From Lentisphaera araneosa HTCC2155 (GTDB lineage Bacteria; Verrucomicrobiota; Lentisphaeria; Lentisphaerales; Lentisphaeraceae), in contig NZ_ABCK01000033.1 in NCBI RefSeq assembly GCF_000170755.1, forward strand, positions 1 to 53,586: a stretch of DNA of 53,586 nucleotides, written 5' to 3'. How positions within the stretch are numbered: the stretch's first letter is position 1; every line of letters begins with the position of its first letter. The translations under genes were made by a program, and so were the position numbers. Of the stretch, positions 1 to 32,795 are shown in pieces. Below the pieces are notes generated by a model. It was not told the DNA's origin, did not search any database, and saw only the letters and a program-made list of their open reading frames with translations.

Positions 1-350
<350 letters not shown>

Positions 351-668
351 TTAAGGAATGAAAAAGACTAACCTCTTTAAGACTTCGGTCTTTATAGAGT
401 GCTTTTTACAAGACTTATTACCCCGTTACTATCGTATAATTCAAATATCAAGCGCTGAGAACAGCACTTCGATATAAGATCTTTGAAAGGAAGAAAACAA
501 TAGAATGAAAGAGTCAAAGTATAATTGAGGTCTTTTAACTTTTATAAGTTAAAGGAACCAACCAAAAAACAATTTATACCAAGATCGCAAACCAAAAGAA
601 TACAAGACAAAGAAAGACTTAGTAGAGATTAGGTGTGTCGCTGAAGATATTATTTTTAATATTTTTGG
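351..668 (+). other. 16S-23S internal transcribed spacer
   Basis: About 318 nt between the 16S end and the 23S start. I see no tRNA gene. Two short hairpins are visible: one with a CTTCGG loop around 378-400, and one around 447-477 (ATATCAAG...CTTCGATAT). The rest is AT-rich processing-stem type sequence. Confidence 0.8.
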
Positions 669-750
669 TGGACAAGCTAGTAAGGGTGTATGATGGATGC
701 CTTGGCACTAACAGGCGATGAAGGACGCGTTAAGCTGCGAAAATCCTCGG
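669..750 (+). rRNA. rrl: 23S rRNA, 5' fragment only
   Basis: The first ~75-80 nt match the 5' end of bacterial 23S rRNA: 'tgatggatgccttggca', 'aggcgatgaaggacg', 'taagctgcgaaaa'. After about 742-750 the rRNA match stops and the sequence becomes a protein-coding frame. No further 23S or 5S sequence follows in the window. The gene is therefore truncated here, either by a real rearrangement or by an assembly join in a repeated rRNA operon. Confidence 0.85.
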
Positions 751-1013
751 TTAATCGCTATTTGGGTGGCGTAAAAGGCGCTAAAGATTTGAGTGTTTAT
801 GCGGTATTTAAAGTTGATGGTAAAACTCAATTAGATACTAAAATTTATGTACAAAACGGGAAAAGACAGAAAGCTTTAGCTACTGGGTTTACTGAGCGAG
901 TATTCGACAGTGAAAACTTAGATTCTGTTGATGGTGTCTTTATGTCTAAGGATGAGAGTCCGTGGGCTGGGACACAGTGGCAGGTATTTCCAAAAATTTC
1001 TAAACAAAAATAG
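742..1013 (+). pseudogene. Headless ORF upstream of pilM, fused to the 23S fragment
   Basis: An open frame of ~90 codons ends at 1013, ten nucleotides before the PilM-like gene. The apparent ATG at 690 lies inside conserved 23S sequence, so it is not the native start; the true 5' part is missing. The remaining protein (from 'KSSVNRYLGGVKGAKDL' to 'FPKISKQK') is soluble and not recognised. In Akkermansia the gene ahead of pilM (Amuc_1102) is pilin-like, so the C-terminal half of a pilin-like or secretion accessory protein is possible, by position only. Confidence 0.5.
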
Positions 1014-1022
1014 GTCTAATTC

Positions 1023-2798
1023 ATGGCTTCAGAATCAGTAGTCACAATTGATGTTGGTGCATCAAGTGTAAAGCTTGGTGAGTTCAAGGTCGATCATAAG
1101 GTTATTACGCTCGAGAGGTTTGGGCATCGTGAATACGATGAAGTCCAAACAGAGAGTAATCGCTCAGCTTTATTAAAATCAACTTTATCCAAAGTGATGC
1201 AAGAGCGTGGGGTTCAAGCAAAGAAGGCTTATATCAGTCTGTCAGCGCAAATGGCATTCACTAAATTTGTAAAGTTACCTCCTGTTGGTGATGATGCTCA
1301 AAAGATCCGTCAAGTGGTTGAGTTTGAAGCTAGGCAGAATGTTCCTTTTGAAATGAATGAAGTCATATGGGATTATCAATTAATTTCATCGCCAGATGCT
1401 GAAGAAGTGGAAGTGATGTTTGTGGCAATCAAAAATGAGATTGTTGAAGAATTAGTCTCGGCAGTTGAAGAGTGCGGCCTAAAAGTAGAAATTGTCGATA
1501 TTGCAACATCAAGTTCTTATAATGCTATCCGCGTCAATCGCATTGGTTTTGATAAGTGTGCGATGGTTCTGAATATTGGGTCCAGAGTGTCTAACTTGAT
1601 TTTTTCTGACGGCACAAGTTTCTTTTCGAGAAACATACCAATTGCGGGGCATGCAGTTACGCAACAAGTGGCAAAAGAATTTGGTATTGGTTTAGAAGAA
1701 GCTGAAGAGTTGAAGAGGCGTCACGGTTTTGTTGCATTGGGTGGGGCTTATGAAGAACCTGAATCTGAAGTGGCTGCTACAATTTCTAAGATTGTAAGAA
1801 ACGTGATGACGCGTTTACATGGTGAGGTCAGTCGTTCTATTAACATATTTAAAAACCAGCAGAAAGGTGCTAAGCCAGAGATTATGCATTTATCTGGAGG
1901 TAGTTCAACTATGTTATTTACAGAGACTTTCTTTCAAGAAAAGATGAAAATTGATGTGAAGTATTTTAACCCCTTTCAAAATGGTGTCACATTAGGCGCT
2001 GACGTCGATAGGCAGGAGTTGGCGGAGCTAGCACATTTATTTAGTGAAGTTATAGGTCTAGTTCTAAGGATTAGTGAATGTCCTGTTGAGATCTCACTGA
2101 CGCCAGAGTCGCTTAAGAAGCAGATTATGAAAAAAGGTAAAATGCCTTATAATTATGCTTCAGCTGCGGTGGCGATTTTAATCCCCTTAATAATTTTAGC
2201 CGGCTCTTTTAGAGAGCGTTTGCATTACCATGGTCAAATTGATGGTAAAGCAGTTAAAATTGATGGTTATAAGAAAATCTTAGATAAAATCACTGCGCAA
2301 ACAAAAAGAAAGACTGCAGTTGAGGCGAAAATTGCTGCATTGGAGCTTTTAAATGAAGAGCGTTATGAATGGGTGAGCTTTCTGAATGATTTAAGGAAGT
2401 ATAAGCCAAAGCCTTTGTGGATTACTTCGATCACTCCGCAGGCAGGTAAAGCCCTTAGTGTTCAGCAGGGGCAGATTAAGCAAGAAACGAAAGAACTTAG
2501 TAAGTTTGCCGCGAAGAAAGCTGAAAGGGATAAAGCCTTGCATAGTCAAACTCAATTAACCGATGTGGGTTCTGTGATTATTGAAGGGTATTATGTTCAG
2601 TATCCAGCATTGGATTTTACAGGTAAAAAACAGAAAGTTTTGTCTAAGATGTTAGAGGATATTGCCATTTCTCCATATGTGTTAGTGGATCCTCCTGGTA
2701 TAACGGGTCCTTTAGAAAAGCGACAAAGTAAAAATAAGGCCTTCGCGTACTTTAAAGCTCAGTTGGGTGTAAAGAATATTGGTAGAGTTGATCAATGA
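1023..2798 (+). CDS. PilM-PilN-like fusion protein, type IV pilus/T2SS inner-membrane platform
   Basis: 591 residues. The first ~350 resemble PilM, an actin/FtsA-fold cytoplasmic ATP-binding protein: N-terminal phosphate-1 motif 'TIDVGASSVKLGEF', a 'LNIGSRVSNLIF' strand and a 'HLSGGSSTMLF' adenosine-type motif. A membrane segment follows at about residues 380-397 ('AAVAILIPLIILAG'), then a periplasmic coiled-coil/PilN-like region. PilM and PilN are usually separate and bind through the PilN N-terminus, so a fusion makes the partnership permanent. The stop overlaps the next start by ATGA, indicating translational coupling. It is expected to link the assembly motor to the secretin alignment complex. 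Confidence 0.8.
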   Translation: MASESVVTIDVGASSVKLGEFKVDHKVITLERFGHREYDEVQTESNRSALLKSTLSKVMQERGVQAKKAYISLSAQMAFTKFVKLPPVGDDAQKIRQVVEFEARQNVPFEMNEVIWDYQLISSPDAEEVEVMFVAIKNEIVEELVSAVEECGLKVEIVDIATSSSYNAIRVNRIGFDKCAMVLNIGSRVSNLIFSDGTSFFSRNIPIAGHAVTQQVAKEFGIGLEEAEELKRRHGFVALGGAYEEPESEVAATISKIVRNVMTRLHGEVSRSINIFKNQQKGAKPEIMHLSGGSSTMLFTETFFQEKMKIDVKYFNPFQNGVTLGADVDRQELAELAHLFSEVIGLVLRISECPVEISLTPESLKKQIMKKGKMPYNYASAAVAILIPLIILAGSFRERLHYHGQIDGKAVKIDGYKKILDKITAQTKRKTAVEAKIAALELLNEERYEWVSFLNDLRKYKPKPLWITSITPQAGKALSVQQGQIKQETKELSKFAAKKAERDKALHSQTQLTDVGSVIIEGYYVQYPALDFTGKKQKVLSKMLEDIAISPYVLVDPPGITGPLEKRQSKNKAFAYFKAQLGVKNIGRVDQ

Positions 2799-3769
2799 AA
2801 GATAAAATTTTAGGAATTATAAAAGATAACAAAGCAAATGTTAGTTTATTGCTTGTGGTTATTGTGGTGAGTGTTGTGTTGTTTAAGTTGTCTTTCGTTT
2901 ATAAGGCAGAAACTAAGAAGCTACAGGAAGATAAAGTTCGCCTGGGTAATGATACTCAGCAAATTAATGCTACACAGTTTCGTTTGGATGGGTCTAATGA
3001 TACATTGGCCAAGAAAAATGATGAGGTTTTGAAAGCGGGTTTCAATGAGTACTATGGTGAGCTAATTGAATCTTTTAATCATGATCAATCAGCAGTTGCG
3101 CAGATGCGCGCAGAAGATGTACAAGATAAGTTTTTGGAGTCTTTGGAGTCTTTGCGCAATATATGTAGTAGCTCAAATGTCGAATTAGCAGAAGAATTTA
3201 AATTTTCTTTTGATGACGAGGTTTCTAGAATCTTTAAAATGGAGCCTAGGGATAAAGTTAAGGTTATGGAGCAGCTGATGGCTGTGGAGAACTTGGTTAA
3301 AATTATTGCCAGTAGTTCTGTAAAATCTATTACGAGTATAGGGCGTCCAAATATTTTAGCAGAGACTGTCGTGAAAGAGAGTTATGCCAAAGTTTACACC
3401 TTTTCATTAGTTTTGCAGATGGAGCCAAATAGTTTTGGGAGCTTATTAAATAAGATTAGTAACGATAAGCAGTTTTATTATCGTGTTAATAGTGTGCGTT
3501 TAGTTACAGATGCTCAGGTAGATAAAGACCTTAACCCGTTGAATCTTTCCAAGAAAGTTGAAGTTGAGGAGGAAGATAAGAAGCCAGTTGCTCAGAGTAT
3601 TGATGATCTATTGACGGGTGTTGATACAGGACTTCCTTTAGAGGAAGAGGTAGAGGTGGAAGAAAAGCCTAAAGAGCGAGTTAATATAAAAGCTTTTGAA
3701 GCACCGCTACAAACTGTTACGATTAGTTTGGATTGGATTCAATTTAAAGAAACTTACCTGGAAAAATAG
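2795..3769 (+). CDS. PilO-like inner-membrane alignment protein
   Basis: 324 residues. One N-terminal membrane segment (about residues 15-34, 'VSLLLVVIVVSVVLFKLSF') is followed by a coiled coil and a periplasmic domain, the PilO/GspM layout. It ends in an acidic stretch (about 258-291, rich in E, D and V) before a final beta-rich tail. Its position directly after the PilM-PilN fusion, with a 4-nt overlap, supports PilO. The Akkermansia pilus-locus protein Amuc_1100 has a comparable position and architecture. The family call rests on topology and context rather than on a diagnostic motif. Confidence 0.65.
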   Translation: MKDKILGIIKDNKANVSLLLVVIVVSVVLFKLSFVYKAETKKLQEDKVRLGNDTQQINATQFRLDGSNDTLAKKNDEVLKAGFNEYYGELIESFNHDQSAVAQMRAEDVQDKFLESLESLRNICSSSNVELAEEFKFSFDDEVSRIFKMEPRDKVKVMEQLMAVENLVKIIASSSVKSITSIGRPNILAETVVKESYAKVYTFSLVLQMEPNSFGSLLNKISNDKQFYYRVNSVRLVTDAQVDKDLNPLNLSKKVEVEEEDKKPVAQSIDDLLTGVDTGLPLEEEVEVEEKPKERVNIKAFEAPLQTVTISLDWIQFKETYLEK

Positions 3770-3770
3770 T

Positions 3771-4787
3771 ATGAAAGATTTTATTAAAGCTAATGTTGAA
3801 AAGGTATTGTTGATCATTGTGATGGCAGCTTTAGTTGTTGTTGCAGTGTTTGTTGTTGCAACTGTTGATGTTAATCCCATTGAATTGATTAAGCTGAGTG
3901 GTAATAAGCCGGTAGTAGTGGCTTCTGGAGATATTGAGAAGCCAAAGCCTGTAAAAGCTACGAGATTGGAGACAGTTTTTGAGAATGGTCAGTATCTCGT
4001 GTGTAGGAATGAAGAGTGTGAAAGAGTTTTTCACGATGATTTTAGGAAATGTCCATGGTGTAAAACTCAAGTAAAAGTCAAGAAAGATGGGGATGTTGCT
4101 GGCGATAGCGATGGTGATGGTATACCAGATACTGTTGAAGCAGAACATAACATGGATCCCAATAATCCAGAGGATGCTTTAGAAGATAGGGATAAGGATG
4201 CTTTTAGTAATTATGATGAGATCATGGTTGGTATCAATGGAGTGCCCACATTAATTGACGATCCATCAAGTTATCCATCTTTACTGAACTACATCCAGGC
4301 AAAGCCAAAGAAAGCTAGGCCCTTGGATTTTATTTACAAATCTGATCAGATCAACGGTGCTGATAAGGGCAGGTGGGAAATTCAGTTTGTAGACAGGCGC
4401 AAGAAAACTAGATGGGTTCGGATCGGCGGGTCTATATTCGATAGTGGCTATAGTTTAGTTGATATTGAAAAAGTAGATGGAAAGGTCGTCCTATCAGTAA
4501 AGAAGGATGAAGGAAATGTATTGTCTGTTAAAAAGGGTAAATACATCTATCCTCCTAATAGTAGTGGCGTCCTGATTTACAATAATCTTGATGGTAAAAC
4601 GTCTTTTGTGGCGGACGATTCAAAGCATGAGCTCATTGGTCTAGATGGAGTTAAGGAGGTTGTAGACTTTAGGGGATGGCGCAGAATTGGCGAAGAAAAG
4701 GTCTTGAAAGCCATTATATTCAGTAGAAAAACAAATGAAGAGTTTGAAATCGATAGTAGGAAATCGATATTAACTCCTGTTAAATAA
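3771..4787 (+). CDS. Inner-membrane protein with zinc ribbon and TSP3-like Ca repeat, pilus operon
   Basis: 338 residues from the ATG at 3771, one nucleotide after the previous stop; an in-frame start further upstream would overlap the PilO-like gene. A membrane segment lies at about 12-32. A zinc ribbon follows with Cys78, Cys83, Cys94 and Cys97 (C-x4-C ... C-x2-C). Next is an Asp-rich calcium-type repeat ('DSDGDGIPDTVEAEH' ... 'DRDKDAFSNYDE', about 112-150) like thrombospondin type-3 repeats, then a ~180-residue C-terminal domain I do not recognise. Context suggests a periplasmic or envelope component of the secretin machine, comparable in position to Amuc_1099. No specific biochemical role can be assigned. 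Confidence 0.6.
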   Translation: MKDFIKANVEKVLLIIVMAALVVVAVFVVATVDVNPIELIKLSGNKPVVVASGDIEKPKPVKATRLETVFENGQYLVCRNEECERVFHDDFRKCPWCKTQVKVKKDGDVAGDSDGDGIPDTVEAEHNMDPNNPEDALEDRDKDAFSNYDEIMVGINGVPTLIDDPSSYPSLLNYIQAKPKKARPLDFIYKSDQINGADKGRWEIQFVDRRKKTRWVRIGGSIFDSGYSLVDIEKVDGKVVLSVKKDEGNVLSVKKGKYIYPPNSSGVLIYNNLDGKTSFVADDSKHELIGLDGVKEVVDFRGWRRIGEEKVLKAIIFSRKTNEEFEIDSRKSILTPVK

Positions 4788-4818: not shown

Positions 4819-7479
4819 ATGAACAATACGTCATTGTTTACTAAATTGACGGCAGTTGTGGCTATGTCACTGACACTGTCGACGATGTCGCAAGATGAAG
4901 CGTCGAAAGTTTCAGAAGAGATTTTAAGTGAAAATAAAAACGAAGATATAAAAGTAGCACCAGAACGTTCTGCTGTTACAAGAAGTGAAGAGATTCGCCG
5001 TCAACAAAGATTGATTGAGTCTGAGTTGAAATTGAACAAAGCAATGAAAAGTTTTGCTATTGGTGATTATGACAAAGCTATAGATAATTATGATATGGCT
5101 ATAGCAGGATTTATTAGTGTTTCAAAAACTCGTGCAGATGTTCTTGAGAAGGTTGAGTTAGCGAAAAAGAATAAAGCTGAGGCAATGGTTCTCAAAGCAG
5201 GTCAGCTAATGACCAGAGCTCAGCAAGAAGTGGATGCTGATTTATATTCTGAGGCAGTTTCAACTCTTAATGCAGCTAAGGTAGTTGCTCCGCAAAGAGA
5301 AGATGAGATTGATGCGAAGATCAAAGATTATATGGCTATTGAAGAAGAATTGCTTTTTGTACGCAAAGTCGACGAAGAGGGTATTCGTGAAATAAGAGAA
5401 GAGGAAGTCGATAGACCCAATGCTATTAAGTTTGAACAGGCAGAAATTTTATTTGCAAACAGAAGATACATGGATGCAAAAGATGTACTAGAGCAAATTT
5501 TAGTGGCAAACCCCTTTGATTCAGATGCAATGGCCCTATTGCGTCGAGTCAATGTGCGAGTAGAAGAGCTTGGTAGAACTAGAAGAAAAGCCACAAGAGA
5601 AGAGCGCTTGGCTCAAGTCGAGTGGGAATGGAATCAGCCATTAAGACCAAGTACACAGATTGGCACGGCGGTCAATGTTGCTACCGATGGACGTATACGT
5701 AATGACGATGCAAGAGTTAAAGATGTTTTTGATAAGTTGAACGGCATAAAGATCCCAAGTGTTGTTTTTGATAATGACTCATTAGATTCAATTGTTGCCC
5801 GCTTAAAACAGATGTCTAAAGACTATGACCCTGATCCAGTGAAGCGCGGTGTTAATATTATTTTACGTATTAATGAAAAAGCTGAAGCCTCAGCGCCAGC
5901 TGAAGATGCCTTTGGTGAAGAAGATGCTTTTGGTGAAGAAGGTGCTTTTGGTGAAGAAGGTGGCTTTGAAGAAGGTGCAGAAGTAGCTGCAAGTGCACCA
6001 GCACAAAATGGTGTTTCCTTAAGATTAAGTGATGTGCCAATTTTAAAGATAATTGAGCTCATTTGTCTGCAGCAAGATTTAAAATATAAAGTCACTGAGC
6101 ATGCAGTAATTATTGCTGACAAAAGTATTCCTCTCGATACAATGGAAGTGCGTTTCTACGATGTTCCTGCAGGTTTCCTAGATTTGATTGAGCCAAACTT
6201 AGATACTGCAGGTGCAAGCCTTATTGATGACGTTGGTGGAGGTGCAGGTGATGGTACAGCTAAAGATGTTCGTCAATATTTTGATGAATTTGGTGTAAAG
6301 TTTGATGCGGGCTCAGAAATTTCTTTTGTTCAATCTGTAAATCGACTTGTTGTTAAAAATACACCTGCTGAGCATGGTAAGATTGATCGCATTATTAAGG
6401 AATTGGCTCCGGCTGAAAACCAAATAATTATCGAATCAAAGTTTTATGAGATCAACCAAGATGACATTGATGAGCTTGCATTTGAGTGGTCAATAGCCCG
6501 TATTGAAGACGGTTCTGGATTTACAGATCCGAATGCTGGTTACATTGGTAGAGATCCAAGTTATGTCGGTGGTGTGAATGGCGATCCAAATGGTTCACTA
6601 AATGATTTTTTGAGTGATGGTTTTAGCCTTGATAAAAGTGGTGATCTGACAAGTGCAGGTGGCGATGGTTTGGAGTCTGCAGTGAGAAGTCTAGGGTCTG
6701 TACTAGGTGCCCCTGGCCTTAGTCAAGGCACATTTAAATTCGCTTCAATCTTAGGTGATACAACATTTAATACCCTTGTTAGTGCTATCCAACAAAGAAG
6801 TGGTGAAGATGTTCTTAATGCGCCTAAAGTAACAACTCAAAATGGTCATACAGCAAAGATCCGTGTTGTACAAGAGCGTTATTTCCCAGAAGAATGGGAG
6901 GAGCCAGAAGTAGAACAAAACTCACAAGGTGATGGTGGTAGTGCTTCAACTGTGACGCCCTCGAAACCAGTGTTTGGTGAGCCTCGTGATATTGGTGCAG
7001 TATTAACAGTAACTCCACAAATCGATCCCGATCAACGTGTCATTGAATTACAACTCAAGCCAGAAGTTATTGAGTTCGTAGAATATGATAATACATTTAA
7101 TGTGGATATGTTAGTTGGCCAAGAAGTGACTTTCATTCCCATCATTGGCAACCCTTTTACAGTCACAGTGTATACCGCTTTTGAACAGAAGTTTAGTATG
7201 CCAATTTTCGAATCTCGTACAGTGGATACAACAGTGCGTGTATGGGATGGCGAAACACTAGCGCTTGGTGGGATGATTAGTGAAAATAAAACAACTTATG
7301 AAGATAAAATTCCCTACCTAGGTGATATTCCATTCTTAGGAAGATTTTTCACTTCAAATGGTGAGAGATCTGTAAAACAAAACTTAATTATCTTCGTTAC
7401 AGCTAGATTAATTGACCCATCAGGCCTTCCTGTTAGTCCTGGCACCTTAAGTGGTTTGCCTGATTTCAAAAGGCTTTAG
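4819..7479 (+). CDS. Secretin (GspD/PilQ family), paralogue 1 of 3
   Basis: 886 residues; signal peptide at the N-terminus; Shine-Dalgarno GAGGA upstream of ATG 4819. An N-terminal helical half (about 60-250) shows TPR-like repeats ('IGDYDKAIDNYDMAIAG', 'NRRYMDAKDVLEQILVANP'). An acidic linker with repeated 'AFGEE' units follows (about 355-390), then an N-domain. The C-terminal secretin barrel has 'LNAPKVTTQNGHTAKIRV', 'DIGAVLTVTPQID' and 'LALGGMISENKT...DKIPYLGDIPFLGRFF'. It ends with 'GLPDFKRL'. Secretins form outer-membrane rings for pili or type II secretion substrates. It is the longest of the three tandem copies and carries an extra Gly/Asp-rich insertion around residues 570-640. Confidence 0.9.
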   Translation: MNNTSLFTKLTAVVAMSLTLSTMSQDEASKVSEEILSENKNEDIKVAPERSAVTRSEEIRRQQRLIESELKLNKAMKSFAIGDYDKAIDNYDMAIAGFISVSKTRADVLEKVELAKKNKAEAMVLKAGQLMTRAQQEVDADLYSEAVSTLNAAKVVAPQREDEIDAKIKDYMAIEEELLFVRKVDEEGIREIREEEVDRPNAIKFEQAEILFANRRYMDAKDVLEQILVANPFDSDAMALLRRVNVRVEELGRTRRKATREERLAQVEWEWNQPLRPSTQIGTAVNVATDGRIRNDDARVKDVFDKLNGIKIPSVVFDNDSLDSIVARLKQMSKDYDPDPVKRGVNIILRINEKAEASAPAEDAFGEEDAFGEEGAFGEEGGFEEGAEVAASAPAQNGVSLRLSDVPILKIIELICLQQDLKYKVTEHAVIIADKSIPLDTMEVRFYDVPAGFLDLIEPNLDTAGASLIDDVGGGAGDGTAKDVRQYFDEFGVKFDAGSEISFVQSVNRLVVKNTPAEHGKIDRIIKELAPAENQIIIESKFYEINQDDIDELAFEWSIARIEDGSGFTDPNAGYIGRDPSYVGGVNGDPNGSLNDFLSDGFSLDKSGDLTSAGGDGLESAVRSLGSVLGAPGLSQGTFKFASILGDTTFNTLVSAIQQRSGEDVLNAPKVTTQNGHTAKIRVVQERYFPEEWEEPEVEQNSQGDGGSASTVTPSKPVFGEPRDIGAVLTVTPQIDPDQRVIELQLKPEVIEFVEYDNTFNVDMLVGQEVTFIPIIGNPFTVTVYTAFEQKFSMPIFESRTVDTTVRVWDGETLALGGMISENKTTYEDKIPYLGDIPFLGRFFTSNGERSVKQNLIIFVTARLIDPSGLPVSPGTLSGLPDFKRL

Positions 7480-7493
7480 TAGGGGTTACTAAT

Positions 7494-9971
7494 ATGATCA
7501 AGTTTGGGAAAACTTTTATATACCAAATCCTTTGTGTAGCTTCACTGCAAGCCCAAGATGCAGATTCAGTTGCAGATAAGATTTTATCAAATGAAAAGGA
7601 TGATGTCTCTTCTTCAGTTGTCAAAAGTAATGAAGTTGTGCGCAAGCAACAGCTATATTTAGAACTAAAAATTAAGGTATCAAAATTAAGAAAAAGTTTA
7701 AATGCTGGTTTTGTCGATGGTTTAGACACTGGTATTACACAAGCTTTTGCAAGTTTAGCAACTTTAGCTTCGTCATCAGATGCTGTGGTGGCTTTGGAAA
7801 ATGAGCTGAAGAGTATAGAAGTCGATTACTTGGTGTACCAAATAGACGAAATTTTGAATACTGTTGAGAGAGCTAATAGCACCAGACAAATTCAAAAAGC
7901 AAAAGACCTCCTTGATCATGCCATTGAATTAGATCCAGAAAACAAGAAAAAATACTTAGCCTTACAAGAGGATTTAAATAATCGTTTTAAAGAACTTGAG
8001 TACGTTGAATCGGTTAATGCTGATGCAATTAACACTGAGGTCCAAGACGTCAACGATGAAGTTAGAGTCTATTATGAGAAAGCTAAGATACTAAAAAGTA
8101 CTGGCGATTATATCAAGTCATTAGAGGTATTAGATAAAATATTAACTTTAGATCCCTTTAATGTTGATGCGAGTCATTTAAAATTTCAGTTAGCAAAAAT
8201 TGTCAAAGAGAAAGGCGCTGAAAGACAGGATTCATTATCTGAGGAACTTTCTGCTGAAAATTCATGGAAATGGGTGGATCCAATTGTCAAATCGGCAGAT
8301 AAAGCCAACGTGCTCGTAAGTAATGTAGAAAGAGACGACGATAATTTTGGTGAGATTTATAAAAAACTAGAAATTGAAATCCCTGTAGTCAATTATGAAG
8401 GTGAGCCTCTTGCGGAAGTTATTGAACAGCTTATAGAGATTAGTAAGCAGCAAGATATTGAAGGTAAGGGTGTAAATATTGTCTTTTTACGTGAAACCAA
8501 GGCTTCTAGCGCTCCACAAGAAGCGGCGATTGATGACTTAGACGATGGTTTTGATGATGGCGGGTTTGATGATGGCGGTTTTGATGATGCAGGCTTCGAA
8601 GATGAAGCTGTAGTTCAAGATAGTGCCCCTCAAACGGTCAATAACTATCCCGTACGCCTCAATGTAGAAAAAGTTCCCATGGGCAAATTACTTGAACTTA
8701 TAGTTCAATCTCAGGGGCTTAATATGAAGATTGAGGAGCACACTGTTATCATAGCTGAACCTAACGTTAAGCTTGAATTGATGGAGACGAAATTCTTTAA
8801 TGTACCAGCAGGGATGTTAGAGATAATACCGACTTCAGATAGTTTAGATTTAGTTGATTCAGGTCTTGGTGAACGAGGCGGTGATGGAGCAGGTCAAAAT
8901 TGGTCAGATTACTTTAAAAACATGGGTGTTACTTTTCCTGCAGGAGCAAAGTTGTCTTATGTCGCAAGTGTTAATCGTTTAGTCGTAACCAACACAGTTA
9001 ATAATAATCAATTAATTCAAGATATAATTAATAACTTAAATACCGGTGCTGCCCAAGTAAATGTGGAAGCAAAAGTGGTAGATATCACCTGGAATGCGAT
9101 GCAAGAATTGGGCTTCTTATGGCGTTGGACGGGTCCACGTACACCTAATCACACATTAACTGGAGATAGGATTTTTGCACAATCGAATACTCCTGCAAGT
9201 GGTGGTGAAAGATTCGATAACAATATCAGAGGCATTAATGAGGTTGTAACTAGTCAGGAAGGCCCGGTTCAGCTGGCCGCTGACTTAATATTTGGTAACC
9301 AAGAATTACAGATGATGATTCGAGCATTGGATCAATCCGATACCAATGAAATTCTCATGGCCCCAAATGTGCTTACAAAAAGCGGAGAAACTGCGGTGAT
9401 TCGCGTCGTTACCTCACAACAGTTTGTTGAAGAATGGGAAGAAGGTGAATTTAGTAACAGTACTGAAATTGTGCCTAGTACACCTACTTTTGGTGAAGAA
9501 AAAGATATCGGCTTTGTTTTAAGTGTAACTCCTGAAGTTGACCCAAATAACACAGTAATTACCATGGAAGTTAATCCCGAGTTTATCGAGTTTTTAGGCT
9601 ATGATACAGATTTGAATACTTCCACAGAACTTCAGCTTTTTGATATAAATGGATCCCCTTTTACTTATCAAGCTGAATTTATATACTCAATGCCGATTTT
9701 TGAAGTCAGATCGATTGAGACAAGAGTCAAATTATGGGATGGACAAACTTTTACTCTTGGTGGCTTAATTAGAGAGAATGTTTGGACTGTAGATGATTCA
9801 ATTCCCTATATATCAGCCATTCCATTTGTGGGTAGATTATTCCAAAATAAGGGTGAGGCTTCAGAAAAACGCTCTTTACTCATGTTTATAACGGCTCGTT
9901 TGATAACTGAGAGTGGCCTGCCATTAAGAATAAATCAAGTGCCAGGGCTTCCTGACTTCAAGAAAATTTAG
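7494..9971 (+). CDS. Secretin (GspD/PilQ family), paralogue 2 of 3
   Basis: 825 residues; AGGGG precedes ATG 7494, 15 nt after paralogue 1. Same plan as its neighbours: short exported N-terminus, helical TPR-like half, acidic linker made of 'DDGGF' repeats (about 345-375), then N-domain and secretin barrel ('LMAPNVLTKSGETAVIRV', 'DIGFVLSVTPEVD', 'FTLGGLIRENVWTVDDSIPYI'). It ends 'GLPDFKKI'. It shares 'ELGFLWRWTGPRTPNHTLTG' almost word for word with paralogue 3 but not with paralogue 1, so copies 2 and 3 are the younger pair. Confidence 0.9.
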   Translation: MIKFGKTFIYQILCVASLQAQDADSVADKILSNEKDDVSSSVVKSNEVVRKQQLYLELKIKVSKLRKSLNAGFVDGLDTGITQAFASLATLASSSDAVVALENELKSIEVDYLVYQIDEILNTVERANSTRQIQKAKDLLDHAIELDPENKKKYLALQEDLNNRFKELEYVESVNADAINTEVQDVNDEVRVYYEKAKILKSTGDYIKSLEVLDKILTLDPFNVDASHLKFQLAKIVKEKGAERQDSLSEELSAENSWKWVDPIVKSADKANVLVSNVERDDDNFGEIYKKLEIEIPVVNYEGEPLAEVIEQLIEISKQQDIEGKGVNIVFLRETKASSAPQEAAIDDLDDGFDDGGFDDGGFDDAGFEDEAVVQDSAPQTVNNYPVRLNVEKVPMGKLLELIVQSQGLNMKIEEHTVIIAEPNVKLELMETKFFNVPAGMLEIIPTSDSLDLVDSGLGERGGDGAGQNWSDYFKNMGVTFPAGAKLSYVASVNRLVVTNTVNNNQLIQDIINNLNTGAAQVNVEAKVVDITWNAMQELGFLWRWTGPRTPNHTLTGDRIFAQSNTPASGGERFDNNIRGINEVVTSQEGPVQLAADLIFGNQELQMMIRALDQSDTNEILMAPNVLTKSGETAVIRVVTSQQFVEEWEEGEFSNSTEIVPSTPTFGEEKDIGFVLSVTPEVDPNNTVITMEVNPEFIEFLGYDTDLNTSTELQLFDINGSPFTYQAEFIYSMPIFEVRSIETRVKLWDGQTFTLGGLIRENVWTVDDSIPYISAIPFVGRLFQNKGEASEKRSLLMFITARLITESGLPLRINQVPGLPDFKKI

Positions 9972-9980
9972 GTGATAATT

Positions 9981-12422
9981 ATGGATAAAATTAATAACTA
10001 TGCCAAGACTCTATTCTTTCTTACATCTCTATTTTCTACCAGTGTCATTGCACAAGAAAATAGTGAAAAAGAAACTGTTGACACAACAACTCTTGTTAAC
10101 AATGAGCAAATTAGAAAACAGCAATTAGAGCTTGAGGCAGATGGCTTTTACTACAAGGCGATGGCTGCAGTAGAAGATTCATCAAACCATGCCGCATTAA
10201 AGTTTTTGGCGAAAGCAAAAGAAGTGTACAAAAGTGCACAGAGTTCTTCTAACAGATTAATCAATAAATTAGAAAATGTTGAAAAACTAAAAGTTCTAGT
10301 CTATAAAAATTTAGTTTCTGAAAAACTTTCCAATTCAAATAATGCCAAAGAAAATAAGTCATTTGAATTAGCTCAATCATACTTAAAAGAGCTTATTGAA
10401 ATTGATCCTGATAATAAGAAACTCTATCAGGCGAAACTAGCTGAAATTGATGAACTCATCCTTCAAGAAGAGTATAAGCAACTTGTTGGTGAAGAACAAA
10501 TCACTCAAGAGGAGCTTGCTAAAAAAGAATCAATTGATGTTAAAATGCAAAGAGCCCAAATTTATTTTGACCAAGGTGAATACGAAAGATGTAGAGAAGA
10601 GTTAGAAGATTTGTTGATTATTGATAAGTTCAATATCCCTGCGAGTCATCTTATGTTTCGTGCATACGAAGAAATCAAAATCCTAGGTAAGCAAAGAAAT
10701 AGAGTTAGTCAAGCGGATTTGTTAGCTGAAACTTCTTGGAAATGGGAAGATAAAATTCGTGTGAGCGCAGATTTAAATGCGGAGTTATTAAATTCTACAA
10801 GTATTAATGTTGATGCTGAAAATAAAACATCTATTCACGATCGTTTAAGACGAATATATATACCTTCAGTTAGTTATGATGGACAAGGTATAAGTGAAAT
10901 AGTTGAAGATTTAATTCGCAAATCGAAAGAATTTGATCCCGATCCTGAAGGTAAAGGGATCAATATAGTTTACTTCGCCTCAAAAGCTAAGGCCGCCCAA
11001 GCTCCTTCAGTAGACCAAGCGGTCGATGATGGCTTTGATGATGGTGGCTTTGATGATGGTGGCTTTGATGATGGTGGCTTTGATGAACCTGAAGCTATTA
11101 CTTCAACTGATAATCAAAATAAAGAAGCACGTTTATTCCTAAATGTTGAAGATATGCAATTAGGAGAATTAATTAATCAAATTACTGAAATCCTTGGTCT
11201 TAAAGTTAAGATTGACAATCATGCTGTTTACATTGCTGATCCAGACTATCCACTAGAAGAAACAGAGACAGTCTTCTTTGATGTGCCTTTGTCTATGATT
11301 GAAGTGGTTGGAGATGCTGGAGACGGCTTAACCGATGATGGCTTAGTACGTGATTCTGGAGAAACAAATTGGCAAGATTACTTCCAGAAATCAGGTGTTA
11401 CTTTTCCTGCTGGAGCAAAAATCTCTTTTGTGAGTAACGTCAATCGTTTAGTAGTTACAAATACCGCAGCTAACATTCAGTTGATAAAACGTATTATTGA
11501 TGAATTAGGTCGACCAAGTGCCCAAATTTCAGTTGAAACTAAATTCATTGATGTTGATTTTAATACAACTCAAGAATTGGGCTTTATGTGGCGTTGGACA
11601 GGACCAAGAACACCAAATCATACTCTGACAGGTGATAGGATTTTTGCACAATCAAATGATGGTGCGACTGCTGCAGAAAGGTTTGATAACAACATTCGCG
11701 GTATAAATGAAATTGTGACTTCACAAGAAGGCCCCGTTCAGTTAGCAGCTGATTTAGTTTTTGGTAATCAAGAACTGCAAATGATGGTTCGAGCTCTAGA
11801 TCAATCAGATACTTCTGAAGTTCTTAGCTCTCCTAATGCAGTGACCCAAAGTGGTAATACAGTTGTCTTACGTGTTGTTGAGGAGCGTTTCCTCCCAGAA
11901 GAATGGGAAGAGGCTCAATTAGACGCGGATGCAATTATTCCAACGACTCCAACATTTGGTGAAGCTCGTGATATAGGCGTTATCCTTGAAGTAACCCCAG
12001 AAGTATCAGCAGATAACAATACAATTAGTATGGATTTAAATCCCCAGCAAGTTGAGCTTCTTGGTTATGATACTGAGTTGAACTCTGATTTAACTAACTT
12101 TACAGATAGTATTACTTACCCGAACTTTTTTAACTACGCGATGCCAATTGTATCCATACGCCAAGTAGAAACTCGAGCTCAGATTTGGGACGGTGAAACA
12201 CTTTTAATTGGTGGTTTAGTAAAAGAGACAGTATATTCTGTTGACGACTCAATACCTTATGTTTCTGATATACCTTATTTGGGAAGATTCTTCCAAAACA
12301 AAGGTGAAAGATCAGAAAAAACCAATCTTTTGATTTTCGTAACGGGTAGATTGATTAGTCCAGTTGGTACACCTTATAAAAAAATGACAGTCCGAGGTCT
12401 TCCTGACTTCAAGCAACTGTAG
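9981..12422 (+). CDS. Secretin (GspD/PilQ family), paralogue 3 of 3
   Basis: About 813 residues from ATG 9981, which has AGGTG seven bases upstream; a GTG at 9972 is also in frame but directly abuts the previous stop. Signal peptide ('TLFFLTSLFSTSVIA'), TPR-like helical half, linker of four 'DDGGF'-type repeats, N-domain, then a secretin barrel with 'LSSPNAVTQSGNTVVLRV', 'DIGVILEVTPEVS' and 'LLIGGLVKETVYSVDDSIPYV'. It ends 'GLPDFKQL'. Three consecutive secretins in one operon could form mixed or alternative outer-membrane rings; that is an inference. Confidence 0.9.
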   Translation: MDKINNYAKTLFFLTSLFSTSVIAQENSEKETVDTTTLVNNEQIRKQQLELEADGFYYKAMAAVEDSSNHAALKFLAKAKEVYKSAQSSSNRLINKLENVEKLKVLVYKNLVSEKLSNSNNAKENKSFELAQSYLKELIEIDPDNKKLYQAKLAEIDELILQEEYKQLVGEEQITQEELAKKESIDVKMQRAQIYFDQGEYERCREELEDLLIIDKFNIPASHLMFRAYEEIKILGKQRNRVSQADLLAETSWKWEDKIRVSADLNAELLNSTSINVDAENKTSIHDRLRRIYIPSVSYDGQGISEIVEDLIRKSKEFDPDPEGKGINIVYFASKAKAAQAPSVDQAVDDGFDDGGFDDGGFDDGGFDEPEAITSTDNQNKEARLFLNVEDMQLGELINQITEILGLKVKIDNHAVYIADPDYPLEETETVFFDVPLSMIEVVGDAGDGLTDDGLVRDSGETNWQDYFQKSGVTFPAGAKISFVSNVNRLVVTNTAANIQLIKRIIDELGRPSAQISVETKFIDVDFNTTQELGFMWRWTGPRTPNHTLTGDRIFAQSNDGATAAERFDNNIRGINEIVTSQEGPVQLAADLVFGNQELQMMVRALDQSDTSEVLSSPNAVTQSGNTVVLRVVEERFLPEEWEEAQLDADAIIPTTPTFGEARDIGVILEVTPEVSADNNTISMDLNPQQVELLGYDTELNSDLTNFTDSITYPNFFNYAMPIVSIRQVETRAQIWDGETLLIGGLVKETVYSVDDSIPYVSDIPYLGRFFQNKGERSEKTNLLIFVTGRLISPVGTPYKKMTVRGLPDFKQL

Positions 12423-12439: not shown

Positions 12440-13390
12440 ATGTCTGATAATAAAAGTGATATAGAAAATACAGAGACAGTAAACTTAGGTTCTCAAACTG
12501 GTCAATCTCCACAGATAGAAACGGCTGAAACCGATCCTTTAATGATTCGTGATACAGATACCACTAAATTAAAGCGTGTATCACCAAGTACACAGAATAT
12601 TAATTTAGATGGTGAAAATTATACTGATACAGTTCACCTAAAAGTTATTAAAGAGCGTAAAAAGCAGCTTTCGGGTATTTTGACTGCGAGTCAAACAATT
12701 CGTTTAAGACCCCCTTCAGCTGGTACTAAGAGCCCAGAAGTTCGCAATACTGATTCTACAGTGATGACTCAAGAACTTAAATTACCTCCTCAAAAAGATG
12801 CAGCTTCTACACTTAAAGTTGCTGACCCAGCTTCAACTGATACGGGGACAATTAAAGTTTCAGGACCAGCTTCGGCAGGGACATTACGTGTTAAAGCGCC
12901 TGTTGCCGCAGAACCTTCTTCAGCGGGGACACTTAAGATTCAAGCTCCAGTAACTGAGCAAGCGAATACTGGTGGAACACTTAAAGTTAAATCTCCTGAT
13001 GATGGTGGTGGAACACTTAAGATTAAAACACCTGATGGTGGTGGAACACTTAAGATTAAAGCTTCTGGTCCAACTCAAGGTGCCTCTGGAACACTCAAAA
13101 TTAAAGCGCCTGTTGCAGCAGATGAAACACTCAAAGTAGACCCTAATGCCGGTGGCGGTACCCTTAAGCTTAAAACTGCAGGTACACAAACAGCTACTGC
13201 GCCTCAAGCCAAGACTCAAAAAAGAGCTCAAAGTGCATCAAGTGATGAAGCATTACTTGAAGAAGATACTAAAGGCAAGCCTGGTATTGTGACGATCTTA
13301 GTTGGACTTGCTGCTTCAGGTGTGTTGGGTTTTACAGTATTTAAAAATATTGATCAATACATGGAAATGTTCAAAATAGCTGGTAGTTAA
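12440..13390 (+). CDS. TLKVK-repeat protein with C-terminal membrane anchor
   Basis: 316 residues with GGAG upstream of the ATG, 17 nt after secretin 3. The middle (about 100-270) is a low-complexity tract of degenerate 'GTLKIKAP'/'GGTLKVK' repeats, with alternating basic and Gly/Pro residues. A single hydrophobic segment sits near the C-terminus (about 283-302, 'IVTILVGLAASGVLGFTVF'). No signal peptide, so a cytoplasmic repeat domain with a C-terminal anchor is the likely topology. It is the last gene of the pilus/secretin operon. Not recognised; a scaffold or docking role is possible. Confidence 0.75.
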   Translation: MSDNKSDIENTETVNLGSQTGQSPQIETAETDPLMIRDTDTTKLKRVSPSTQNINLDGENYTDTVHLKVIKERKKQLSGILTASQTIRLRPPSAGTKSPEVRNTDSTVMTQELKLPPQKDAASTLKVADPASTDTGTIKVSGPASAGTLRVKAPVAAEPSSAGTLKIQAPVTEQANTGGTLKVKSPDDGGGTLKIKTPDGGGTLKIKASGPTQGASGTLKIKAPVAADETLKVDPNAGGGTLKLKTAGTQTATAPQAKTQKRAQSASSDEALLEEDTKGKPGIVTILVGLAASGVLGFTVFKNIDQYMEMFKIAGS

Positions 13391-13410
13391 AGCTAACTTA
13401 CAGATCAATA

Positions 13411-13445
13411 AAAAACGCTGAAACTTATGTTTCAGCGTTTTTTTA
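13411..13445. terminator. Rho-independent terminator, usable from both strands
   Basis: Perfect hairpin with arms AAAAACGCTGAAAC and GTTTCAGCGTTTTT around a four-base loop, followed by a T-run. It sits between the end of the secretin operon (plus) and the end of the aldehyde dehydrogenase gene (minus), so it serves both convergent units. Confidence 0.9.
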
Positions 13446-31742: not shown

Positions 31743-31907
31743 GAAGCCGCCCTGCGGCAGGCTGTGCTTGTGTAAGTCATTTTCTCCTCTTGTCAAAACT
31801 TTCCTCGGTGCCTTTTAATTTGTAGTTTGGTCTTCTTTTACGGTAGTTTTTCTCTGTAGCTTATCAAGGACACAGTTTTGTGTTCTGGCTTAATTAAACG
31901 GAGAAAA

Positions 31908-32795
31908 ATGATGAATGATTCATTCCAAAAATATTATAGAGCGATGCAATTGGAGCTTAAGCTCCAAGCTAAGGCAAAGAGTACAGTGGACAACTACTTG
32001 CGAGCTTTGCGTCGCGTCAATGATTTGATTGCTTCGCCTCTTGATCAACTTAAAGAAGAGGAGCTCAAGCTCTACTTTTCTGAATTGGTGGATACTTATT
32101 CCTGGAGCACGGTGAAGATGGATCGCTGTGCCCTAAGTTTTTTTTATCAATACGTGCTCAAGCGCGAGTGGAAATGGCTCGAAATTGTTCGTATCCCCCG
32201 AGTAAAATCCTTACCCGATATCCTCAGCCAAGATGAAACTTTACTGATTTTGTCTCATTTGGAAAAAGCTCGCTATCGAACTTGTCTCACAGCAATTTAT
32301 TCCATGGGTCTACGCATCAGCGAGGGTGTGAGAATTCAAACAGGCGACATTTGCAAGGATCGCATGCGTTTACATGTGCGCAATTCCAAGGGCTACAAAG
32401 ACCGTCTCGTTCCCTTGCCCCAAGTGACTTACCAGATGCTAAGGGATTACTGGGTGATGCACCGCAATCCGCTACTGCTATTTCCGCGTTATGCCGGGAA
32501 AAGTCGTAGCAATTCCAAAACGACTTTGCACATGGATAAGGGCGGGGTGCAGTCGGCCTTTAAAGCGGCTTTGGCTGATAGTGGCCTCGCCAAACAGGTG
32601 TCGGTGCATTCCCTGCGTCATTCCTATGCAACACATTTGGTGGAAGCGGGAGTGAACTTGCGAGTAATTCAAGAAATCCTCGGTCATAGTTCTCCGGCAA
32701 CCACGGCGATTTACTCTCATTTATCAAAACCCGTGATACAGGACTCCGATGGCATGATCAACAAATTGATGCAGCGCCTAGGAGCTCTGCGATGA
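31908..32795 (+). CDS. Tyrosine recombinase paired with an IS91-type transposase
   Basis: 295 residues from ATG 31908 with GGAG just upstream. N-terminal SAM-like DNA-binding domain (about 1-95). Catalytic set: Arg in 'SMGLRISEG', Lys in 'SKGYKDRLVPL', His-x-x-Arg in 'HSLRHSYATHL', His in 'LGHSSPAT' and the nucleophile Tyr in 'TAIYSHL'. It lacks the extra patch expected in integron integrases and is not the source of the IntI remnant at 53328. Its stop overlaps the transposase start by ATGA, so the two act as a unit. Confidence 0.9.
   Translation: MMNDSFQKYYRAMQLELKLQAKAKSTVDNYLRALRRVNDLIASPLDQLKEEELKLYFSELVDTYSWSTVKMDRCALSFFYQYVLKREWKWLEIVRIPRVKSLPDILSQDETLLILSHLEKARYRTCLTAIYSMGLRISEGVRIQTGDICKDRMRLHVRNSKGYKDRLVPLPQVTYQMLRDYWVMHRNPLLLFPRYAGKSRSNSKTTLHMDKGGVQSAFKAALADSGLAKQVSVHSLRHSYATHLVEAGVNLRVIQEILGHSSPATTAIYSHLSKPVIQDSDGMINKLMQRLGALR

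What the first reader, a model, noticed from the sequence alone, without database searches (positions are those of the whole stretch)
4819..12422. Three consecutive secretins in one operon
Three full-length secretin genes (886, 825, ~813 residues) follow each other with gaps of 9-15 nt. One secretin per machine is the rule. Copies 2 and 3 share long identical stretches absent from copy 1. Mixed rings, or three machines sharing one inner-membrane platform, are possible.
Basis: partly seen in the sequence, partly recalled or inferred. Interest (0 to 1): 0.6.

Follow-up and report, generated by a model that had tools for sequence, protein, structure and literature searches.

The report
Three tandem secretins, one pilus platform
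A marine Lentisphaera bacterium carries three old, intact, divergent copies of the outer-membrane gate protein of its pilus machine side by side, apparently serving one inner-membrane platform; side-by-side gate genes have arisen at least five separate times in this bacterial phylum, which breaks the usual pattern of one gate protein per machine.

Summary
Three full-length secretin genes (886, 825 and 813 aa) lie 14 and 9 nt apart at the end of a PilM / Amuc_1100-like / Amuc_1099-like operon, the type IV pilus-like locus of Verrucomicrobiota. They are old and intact, not recent or decayed copies: 32-47% identical, same order in three Lentisphaera species, dN/dS 0.025-0.073 where computable. 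The stretch that is nearly identical in copies 2 and 3 has strongly diverged synonymous sites, so it reflects constraint, not recent gene conversion. A survey puts this in context: of 53 class loci with complete secretins, 25 have one, 25 have two and three (Lentisphaera only) have three. Trees and AU tests indicate at least five independent tandem duplications in the phylum. Platform genes do not multiply with the secretins. One genome with exactly two secretins has a single platform protein, and in Lentisphaera every other platform has its own nearby secretin, leaving one orphan PilC for the triplet. Best reading: several specialised, co-expressed secretins serve one pilus machine. Whether they form mixed rings (my slight preference) or alternative uniform rings is undecided; sequence tests for co-variation were negative or marginal. 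New variant of a known kind.

The parts
749..1016 (+). 3' part of the small secreted-protein gene that precedes pilM in Lentisphaera; its 5' part is missing because the contig is mis-joined to rRNA upstream
   Evidence: 82% identical to the C-terminal part of the 221-aa frame upstream of pilM in L. marina; the same 118 bases recur on contig C35
1023..2798 (+). PilM / Amuc_1101-like actin-fold protein, 591 aa
   Evidence: PF11104 133.8 bits, NF045709 8e-126
2795..3769 (+). Amuc_1100-like pilus-associated protein, 324 aa
   Evidence: NF038287 9e-16, below cut-off; position conserved across the class
3768..4787 (+). Amuc_1099-like protein, 339 aa
   Evidence: NF042425 3.4e-4, below cut-off; position conserved across the class
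4819..7479 (+). Secretin 1, 886 aa: signal-like N-terminus, helical (TPR) region, N0 fold with acidic G/F-rich loop, small KH-like domain, beta-barrel with long first loop, C-terminal GLPDFKRL
   Evidence: PF00263 117.5 bits; NF042912 394 bits; AlphaFold model mean pLDDT 74
7494..9971 (+). Secretin 2, 825 aa, same architecture, shorter first barrel loop
   Evidence: PF00263 106.8 bits; model mean pLDDT 75; Foldseek best hits are PilQ 6w6m and other secretins
9981..12422 (+). Secretin 3, 813 aa, closest to secretin 2
   Evidence: PF00263 108.2 bits; groups with secretin 2 at 100% support
9129..9368 (+). Part of secretin 2 (about residues 546-625: end of first barrel strand to third strand) nearly identical in secretin 3
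   Evidence: Mostly 77-100% identity per 30-column window across the three species, with one short variable loop; third codon positions only 41-62% identical
12440..13390 (+). 316-aa protein with GTLKIK-type repeats and a C-terminal hydrophobic segment; last gene of the operon
   Evidence: Seven 36-nt repeat copies; in the same place in L. marina and G001, and twice beside the secretin pair of G005
13410..13443 (+). Terminator-like hairpin ending the operon; no comparable one between the secretins
   Evidence: 15-pair stem followed by a T run

Best explanation
This is the type IV pilus-like locus of Verrucomicrobiota (Amuc_1098-1102 type) in which the single secretin gene has been duplicated in tandem twice: first into a secretin 1 type and a secretin 2/3 type, then 2/3 split again in Lentisphaera. 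The three proteins are made from one operon and serve one shared inner-membrane platform (the orphan PilC next to PilT on another contig). They have specialised since duplication. My leading guess, about 0.45, is that they co-assemble into mixed outer-membrane rings; next, about 0.35, that they form separate uniform rings used in turn by the same platform. Shown here: three intact genes under purifying selection, one locus, old and repeated duplications, and no multiplication of platform genes. Inferred: co-expression, sharing of the platform, and the form of the ring.
For: Operon layout with 9-15 nt gaps, purine-rich sites before each gene and one terminator at the end. Same triplet in three species. 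Purifying selection on each copy, dN/dS 0.025-0.073 where computable. Single PilM-1100-1099 set per locus. Platform count does not rise with secretin count: by my tally, mean T2SSF hits are 6.0 in 25 two-secretin genomes against 7.1 in 24 one-secretin genomes. G056 has exactly two secretins and one platform protein. In G001 and G002 every other platform lies within about 10 kb of its own secretin, leaving one orphan PilC and the triplet; in G000 the other platform is in a type II secretion cluster with its own GspD. At least five independent tandem duplications, most still adjacent.
Against: No expression or protein data. The platform link is by elimination: PilC lies on another contig. G028 and G036, which also have one platform, carry further weak secretin-like genes elsewhere, so secretins without a platform of their own exist. 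Every copy keeps all domains, so each could form its own ring. Akkermansia-like genomes keep two unlinked secretins of this family, so adjacency is not essential everywhere. No clear co-variation between paralogues.
Confidence: 0.65

Rival explanations
1. Separate uniform rings: each secretin forms its own ring and the one platform docks to whichever ring is present, giving different pili, cargo or surface exposure.
For: All copies keep the full domain set. The N-terminal helical region that faces the periplasm diverges most between copies, as expected if rings have different partners. Unlinked pairs exist in Akkermansia-like genomes.
Against: Makes no prediction for why tandem adjacency arose and persisted so often; only one PilM-1100-1099 set per locus.
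Confidence: 0.35
2. Dosage: the secretin is the most abundant outer-membrane protein in Akkermansia (PMC4960237), and extra copies simply raise its amount.
For: High abundance of the Akkermansia homologue (PMC4960237); tandem duplication is the usual route to more dosage.
Against: Selection for amount alone should keep copies alike. These differ at 53-68% of residues, and copies in the class are old and keep their separate lineages.
Confidence: 0.1
3. Diversification under attack: copies differ because the surface-exposed parts are phage receptors or antigens.
For: The first barrel loop differs most in length between Sec1 and Sec2/3.
Against: That region is the most alike part of Sec2 and Sec3, the reverse of the expectation; all copies are under strong purifying selection.
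Confidence: 0.07
4. Redundant copies kept by chance, on the way to decay.
For: Sec2 and Sec3 evolve somewhat faster than Sec1 (dN 0.18 and 0.14 against 0.11 for G000-G001).
Against: Intact in all three species with dN/dS under 0.08 where computable; two-copy arrays are kept across many families.
Confidence: 0.03

Closest known systems
Amuc_1098-1102 type IV pilus-like locus of Akkermansia muciniphila (secretin Amuc_1098, NF042912)
   Same: Same gene set (PilM, 1100-, 1099-like, secretin), same secretin architecture with N-terminal TPR region; the Amuc_1098 protein is located in the outer membrane (PMC4960237)
   Different: One secretin at that locus in the Akkermansia-like genome G145, with a second homologue elsewhere; here three in tandem. 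Scores are 279-394 bits against a cut-off of 750
Two-secretin loci of Victivallales-type Lentisphaeria (e.g. L136, L162)
   Same: Same locus, two tandem secretins after PilM-1100-1099
   Different: A separate duplication (AU p 2e-5); two copies, not three; no GTLKIK repeat gene seen at those loci
Type IVa pilus secretin PilQ (structure 6w6m)
   Same: Best fold match of the secretin 2 model (Foldseek E 3e-21)
   Different: No TPR region of this kind; normally a single pilQ gene per system (own knowledge)
Type II secretion system GspD in the same genome (C6)
   Same: Secretin barrel
   Different: Single gene in a gsp cluster with its own GspE and GspF
Mixed multimers of filamentous-phage pIV secretins made in the laboratory (own knowledge, not tested here)
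   Same: Shows that related secretins can in principle share a ring
   Different: Artificial mixture; here the paralogues are encoded together

Membership tests
Secretin superfamily (PF00263) | C-terminal secretin domain over the curated cut-off | tested here: met
   117.5, 106.8 and 108.2 bits against 27.5
Secretin superfamily (PF00263) | Secretin fold: N-domains followed by a beta-barrel | tested here: met
   Model of secretin 2 matches PilQ, GspD, InvG and pIV structures with Foldseek E down to 3e-21; secretin 1 model shows the same order of elements
Secretin superfamily (PF00263) | Forms a multimeric ring in the outer membrane | not testable with these tools
   Only monomer prediction available
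Amuc_1098 family (NF042912) | Score over the curated cut-off of 750 bits | tested here: not met
   394, 279 and 314 bits; no genome of the class sample reaches it
Amuc_1098-type locus | Secretin follows PilM, Amuc_1100-like and Amuc_1099-like genes | tested here: met
Amuc_1098-type locus | One secretin at the locus | tested here: not met
   Three here; one or two in other genomes of the class
Type II secretion GspD (TIGR02517) | Score over cut-off 351 bits | tested here: not met
   130-137 bits
Type IV pilus PilQ (TIGR02515) | Score over cut-off 284 bits | tested here: not met
   123-128 bits
Hetero-oligomeric (mixed) secretin ring | Paralogues co-vary or co-purify | tested here: inconclusive
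   Sister-pair test on 21 disjoint pairs from 48 two-copy loci: no region significant, whole protein p 0.02; co-purification not testable

The most novel reading that the evidence does not exclude
The three paralogues form an obligate mixed secretin ring, a hetero-oligomeric outer-membrane gate for a type IV pilus-like machine, and such mixed rings evolved at least five times independently in Verrucomicrobiota.
Probability: 0.3. Interest if true: 0.78.

Novelty: new variant of a known kind. Interest (0 to 1): 0.52.

Why it matters
Secretins are treated as uniform rings, one gene per machine. A class of bacteria in which two or three divergent secretins repeatedly arose beside one another, with no matching increase in platform genes, would be a natural experiment on whether secretin rings can be mixed, or whether one pilus motor can serve several gates. 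Reduced genomes with few or no other secretins would make the question testable. I found no report of tandem secretins of this kind in the open literature searched.

Tried and rejected
Recent duplication or gene conversion: rejected for the window, synonymous sites of Sec2 and Sec3 have diverged even in the near-identical stretch, and shared species-specific differences mostly use different codons in the two copies. One ancient duplication with losses: AU test rejects all second copies as one clade (p 1e-10) and rejects grouping the window family's second copies with those of Victivallales (p 2e-5); ancient conversion between neighbours could still mimic separate origins. Paralogue co-evolution: a permutation test over 48 two-copy loci showed a small excess of same-genome identity (+1.5%), but it shrank to +0.35% with sister-pair control and no region was significant, so I do not claim it. 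A fused double secretin in G113, suggested by one search row, was checked and is two genes separated by a TAA stop. Secretin alignment A1 was too diverse for a genome scan, so PilM was used instead. Literature searches for tandem, paralogous or mixed secretins found nothing on point.

Full report
Observation. The window holds three consecutive full-length secretin genes: Sec1 4819-7479, Sec2 7494-9971, Sec3 9981-12422. Gaps are 14 and 9 nt. All pass the Pfam Secretin cut-off. They close an operon of PilM (1023-2798), an Amuc_1100-like gene (2795-3769) and an Amuc_1099-like gene (3768-4787), followed by a repeat protein (12440-13390) and a terminator-like hairpin (13410-13443). This is the gene set of the type IV pilus-like locus of Akkermansia muciniphila (Amuc_1098-1102), whose secretin is in the outer membrane and is the most abundant protein there (PMC4960237). 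The window belongs to the genus Lentisphaera: one same-genus genome, G002, is L. marina IMCC11369 (L112). The window genome is probably L. araneosa; that is inference.

The copies are old and intact. Identities are 47% (2/3), 35% (1/2) and 32% (1/3). The near-identical stretch of copies 2 and 3 (about Sec2 546-625, from the end of the first long barrel strand to the third strand in the model) has third-position identity of only 41-62%, so it was kept by selection on the protein, not by recent copying. Between Lentisphaera species each copy is intact, with dN/dS between 0.025 and 0.073 where it can be computed; dS is near saturation, so these ratios are rough. Copies 2 and 3 evolve a little faster than copy 1. 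Predicted structures of Sec2 and Sec1 show the same order of parts: helical TPR region, N0 fold interrupted by a disordered acidic loop, small KH-like domain, barrel. Fold search matches PilQ, GspD, InvG and phage pIV.

Survey. I searched 60 genomes of the class and read the locus in nearly all of them. Of loci with complete secretins (740 aa or more), 25 have one, 25 have two in tandem, and three have three; the three are the three Lentisphaera genomes. A few single-copy loci end near a contig edge (for example G053, G041), so singles may be slightly overcounted. Eighty named loci from GTDB genomes, partly the same genomes, give the same picture: one in Oligosphaera and in the Verrucomicrobiia sampled, two in Victivallales-type loci, three in L. 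marina. Outside the class, G113 (single-contig assembly) and G156 also have tandem pairs, while Akkermansia-like genomes have two unlinked homologues.

Evolution. Secretin trees place tandem copies in five separate groups: the window family (where the second copy split again in Lentisphaera), G024, the Victivallales-type families, G113 and G156. Within the Victivallales-type group, first copies and second copies form two mirrored trees, so both have been inherited together for a long time. Tests reject one origin for all second copies of the class (p 1e-10), and reject grouping those of the window family with those of Victivallales (p 2e-5). These are quick trees under one model, and old conversion between neighbours could inflate the count.

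One platform. Own-genome search finds two platform proteins: GspF in a type II secretion cluster with its own GspD and GspE on C6, and a PilC next to PilT on C16. In G001 and G002 the other platforms lie within about 10 kb of their own secretins, and one PilC is left without a secretin nearby. Across relatives, platform hits do not rise with secretin number (my tally: 6.0 on average for two-secretin genomes, 7.1 for one-secretin genomes). G056, 94% complete, has exactly two secretins and one platform protein; G040 appears to be the same, with its platform gene split by a contig break. G028 and G036 also have one platform, but carry extra weak secretin-like genes elsewhere. So two or three secretins per platform is the best reading, though it rests on elimination.

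Mode of action. Mixed rings and alternative uniform rings both fit. For mixed rings: tandem adjacency in one operon, repeated origins, one set of alignment proteins. Against: every copy is complete, unlinked pairs exist, and a sister-pair test for co-variation drawn from 48 two-copy loci found no significant region. I put mixed rings at about 0.45 within the shared-platform reading, uniform rings at about 0.35. Dosage, diversification under attack and decay explain the data less well.

Novelty. I found no report of tandem or multiple secretins at one pilus locus in the open-access papers searched; a survey of the type IV filament superfamily discusses duplications of ATPases and pilins, and the passages retrieved do not mention tandem secretins (PMC6668835). 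The proteins are known secretins in a known locus; the arrangement is a new variant.

Noticed in passing
window 1-750: The contig starts with the end of a 16S rRNA gene, a spacer and the first bases of 23S, then jumps into a protein gene. The rRNA part recurs exactly elsewhere in the genome up to window position 750, and the gene part (743-860) recurs on contig C35, so this is most likely a mis-assembly.
   Followed up: yes
window 31878-53586: A tyrosine integrase (31878-32795) precedes a long run of small, mostly minus-strand ORFs separated by recurring TAACG-type repeats of about 50-130 nt: looks like a chromosomal integron cassette array, with IS91-type transposases at 32792 and 51043.
   Followed up: partly
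window 12440-13390: Last operon gene encodes a tail-anchored-looking protein with GTLKIK-type repeats; relatives occur unlinked in other Lentisphaeria, and two copies flank the secretin pair of G005.
   Followed up: partly
window 5872-6012, 8497-8640 and 11000-11110 approx.: All three secretins carry an acidic, Gly/Phe-rich repeat (such as DDGFDDGGFDDGG) in a disordered loop inside the N0 fold.
   Followed up: no
G042:C1:286197-290356, G009:C49:7464-11618: Many Lentisphaeria have two PilB-like ATPase genes in tandem just before a single PilC, another paralogue pair on one platform.
   Followed up: no
G000 contigs C16, C46 (L107, L108): The window genome has at least three PilT-family ATPases, two of them adjacent on C46.
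   Followed up: no
G028:C3:4386-6274, G028:C4:26318-28494, G036:C60:80193-82394: Weak, adjacent pairs of further secretin-like genes in reduced genomes, away from the pilus locus.
   Followed up: no
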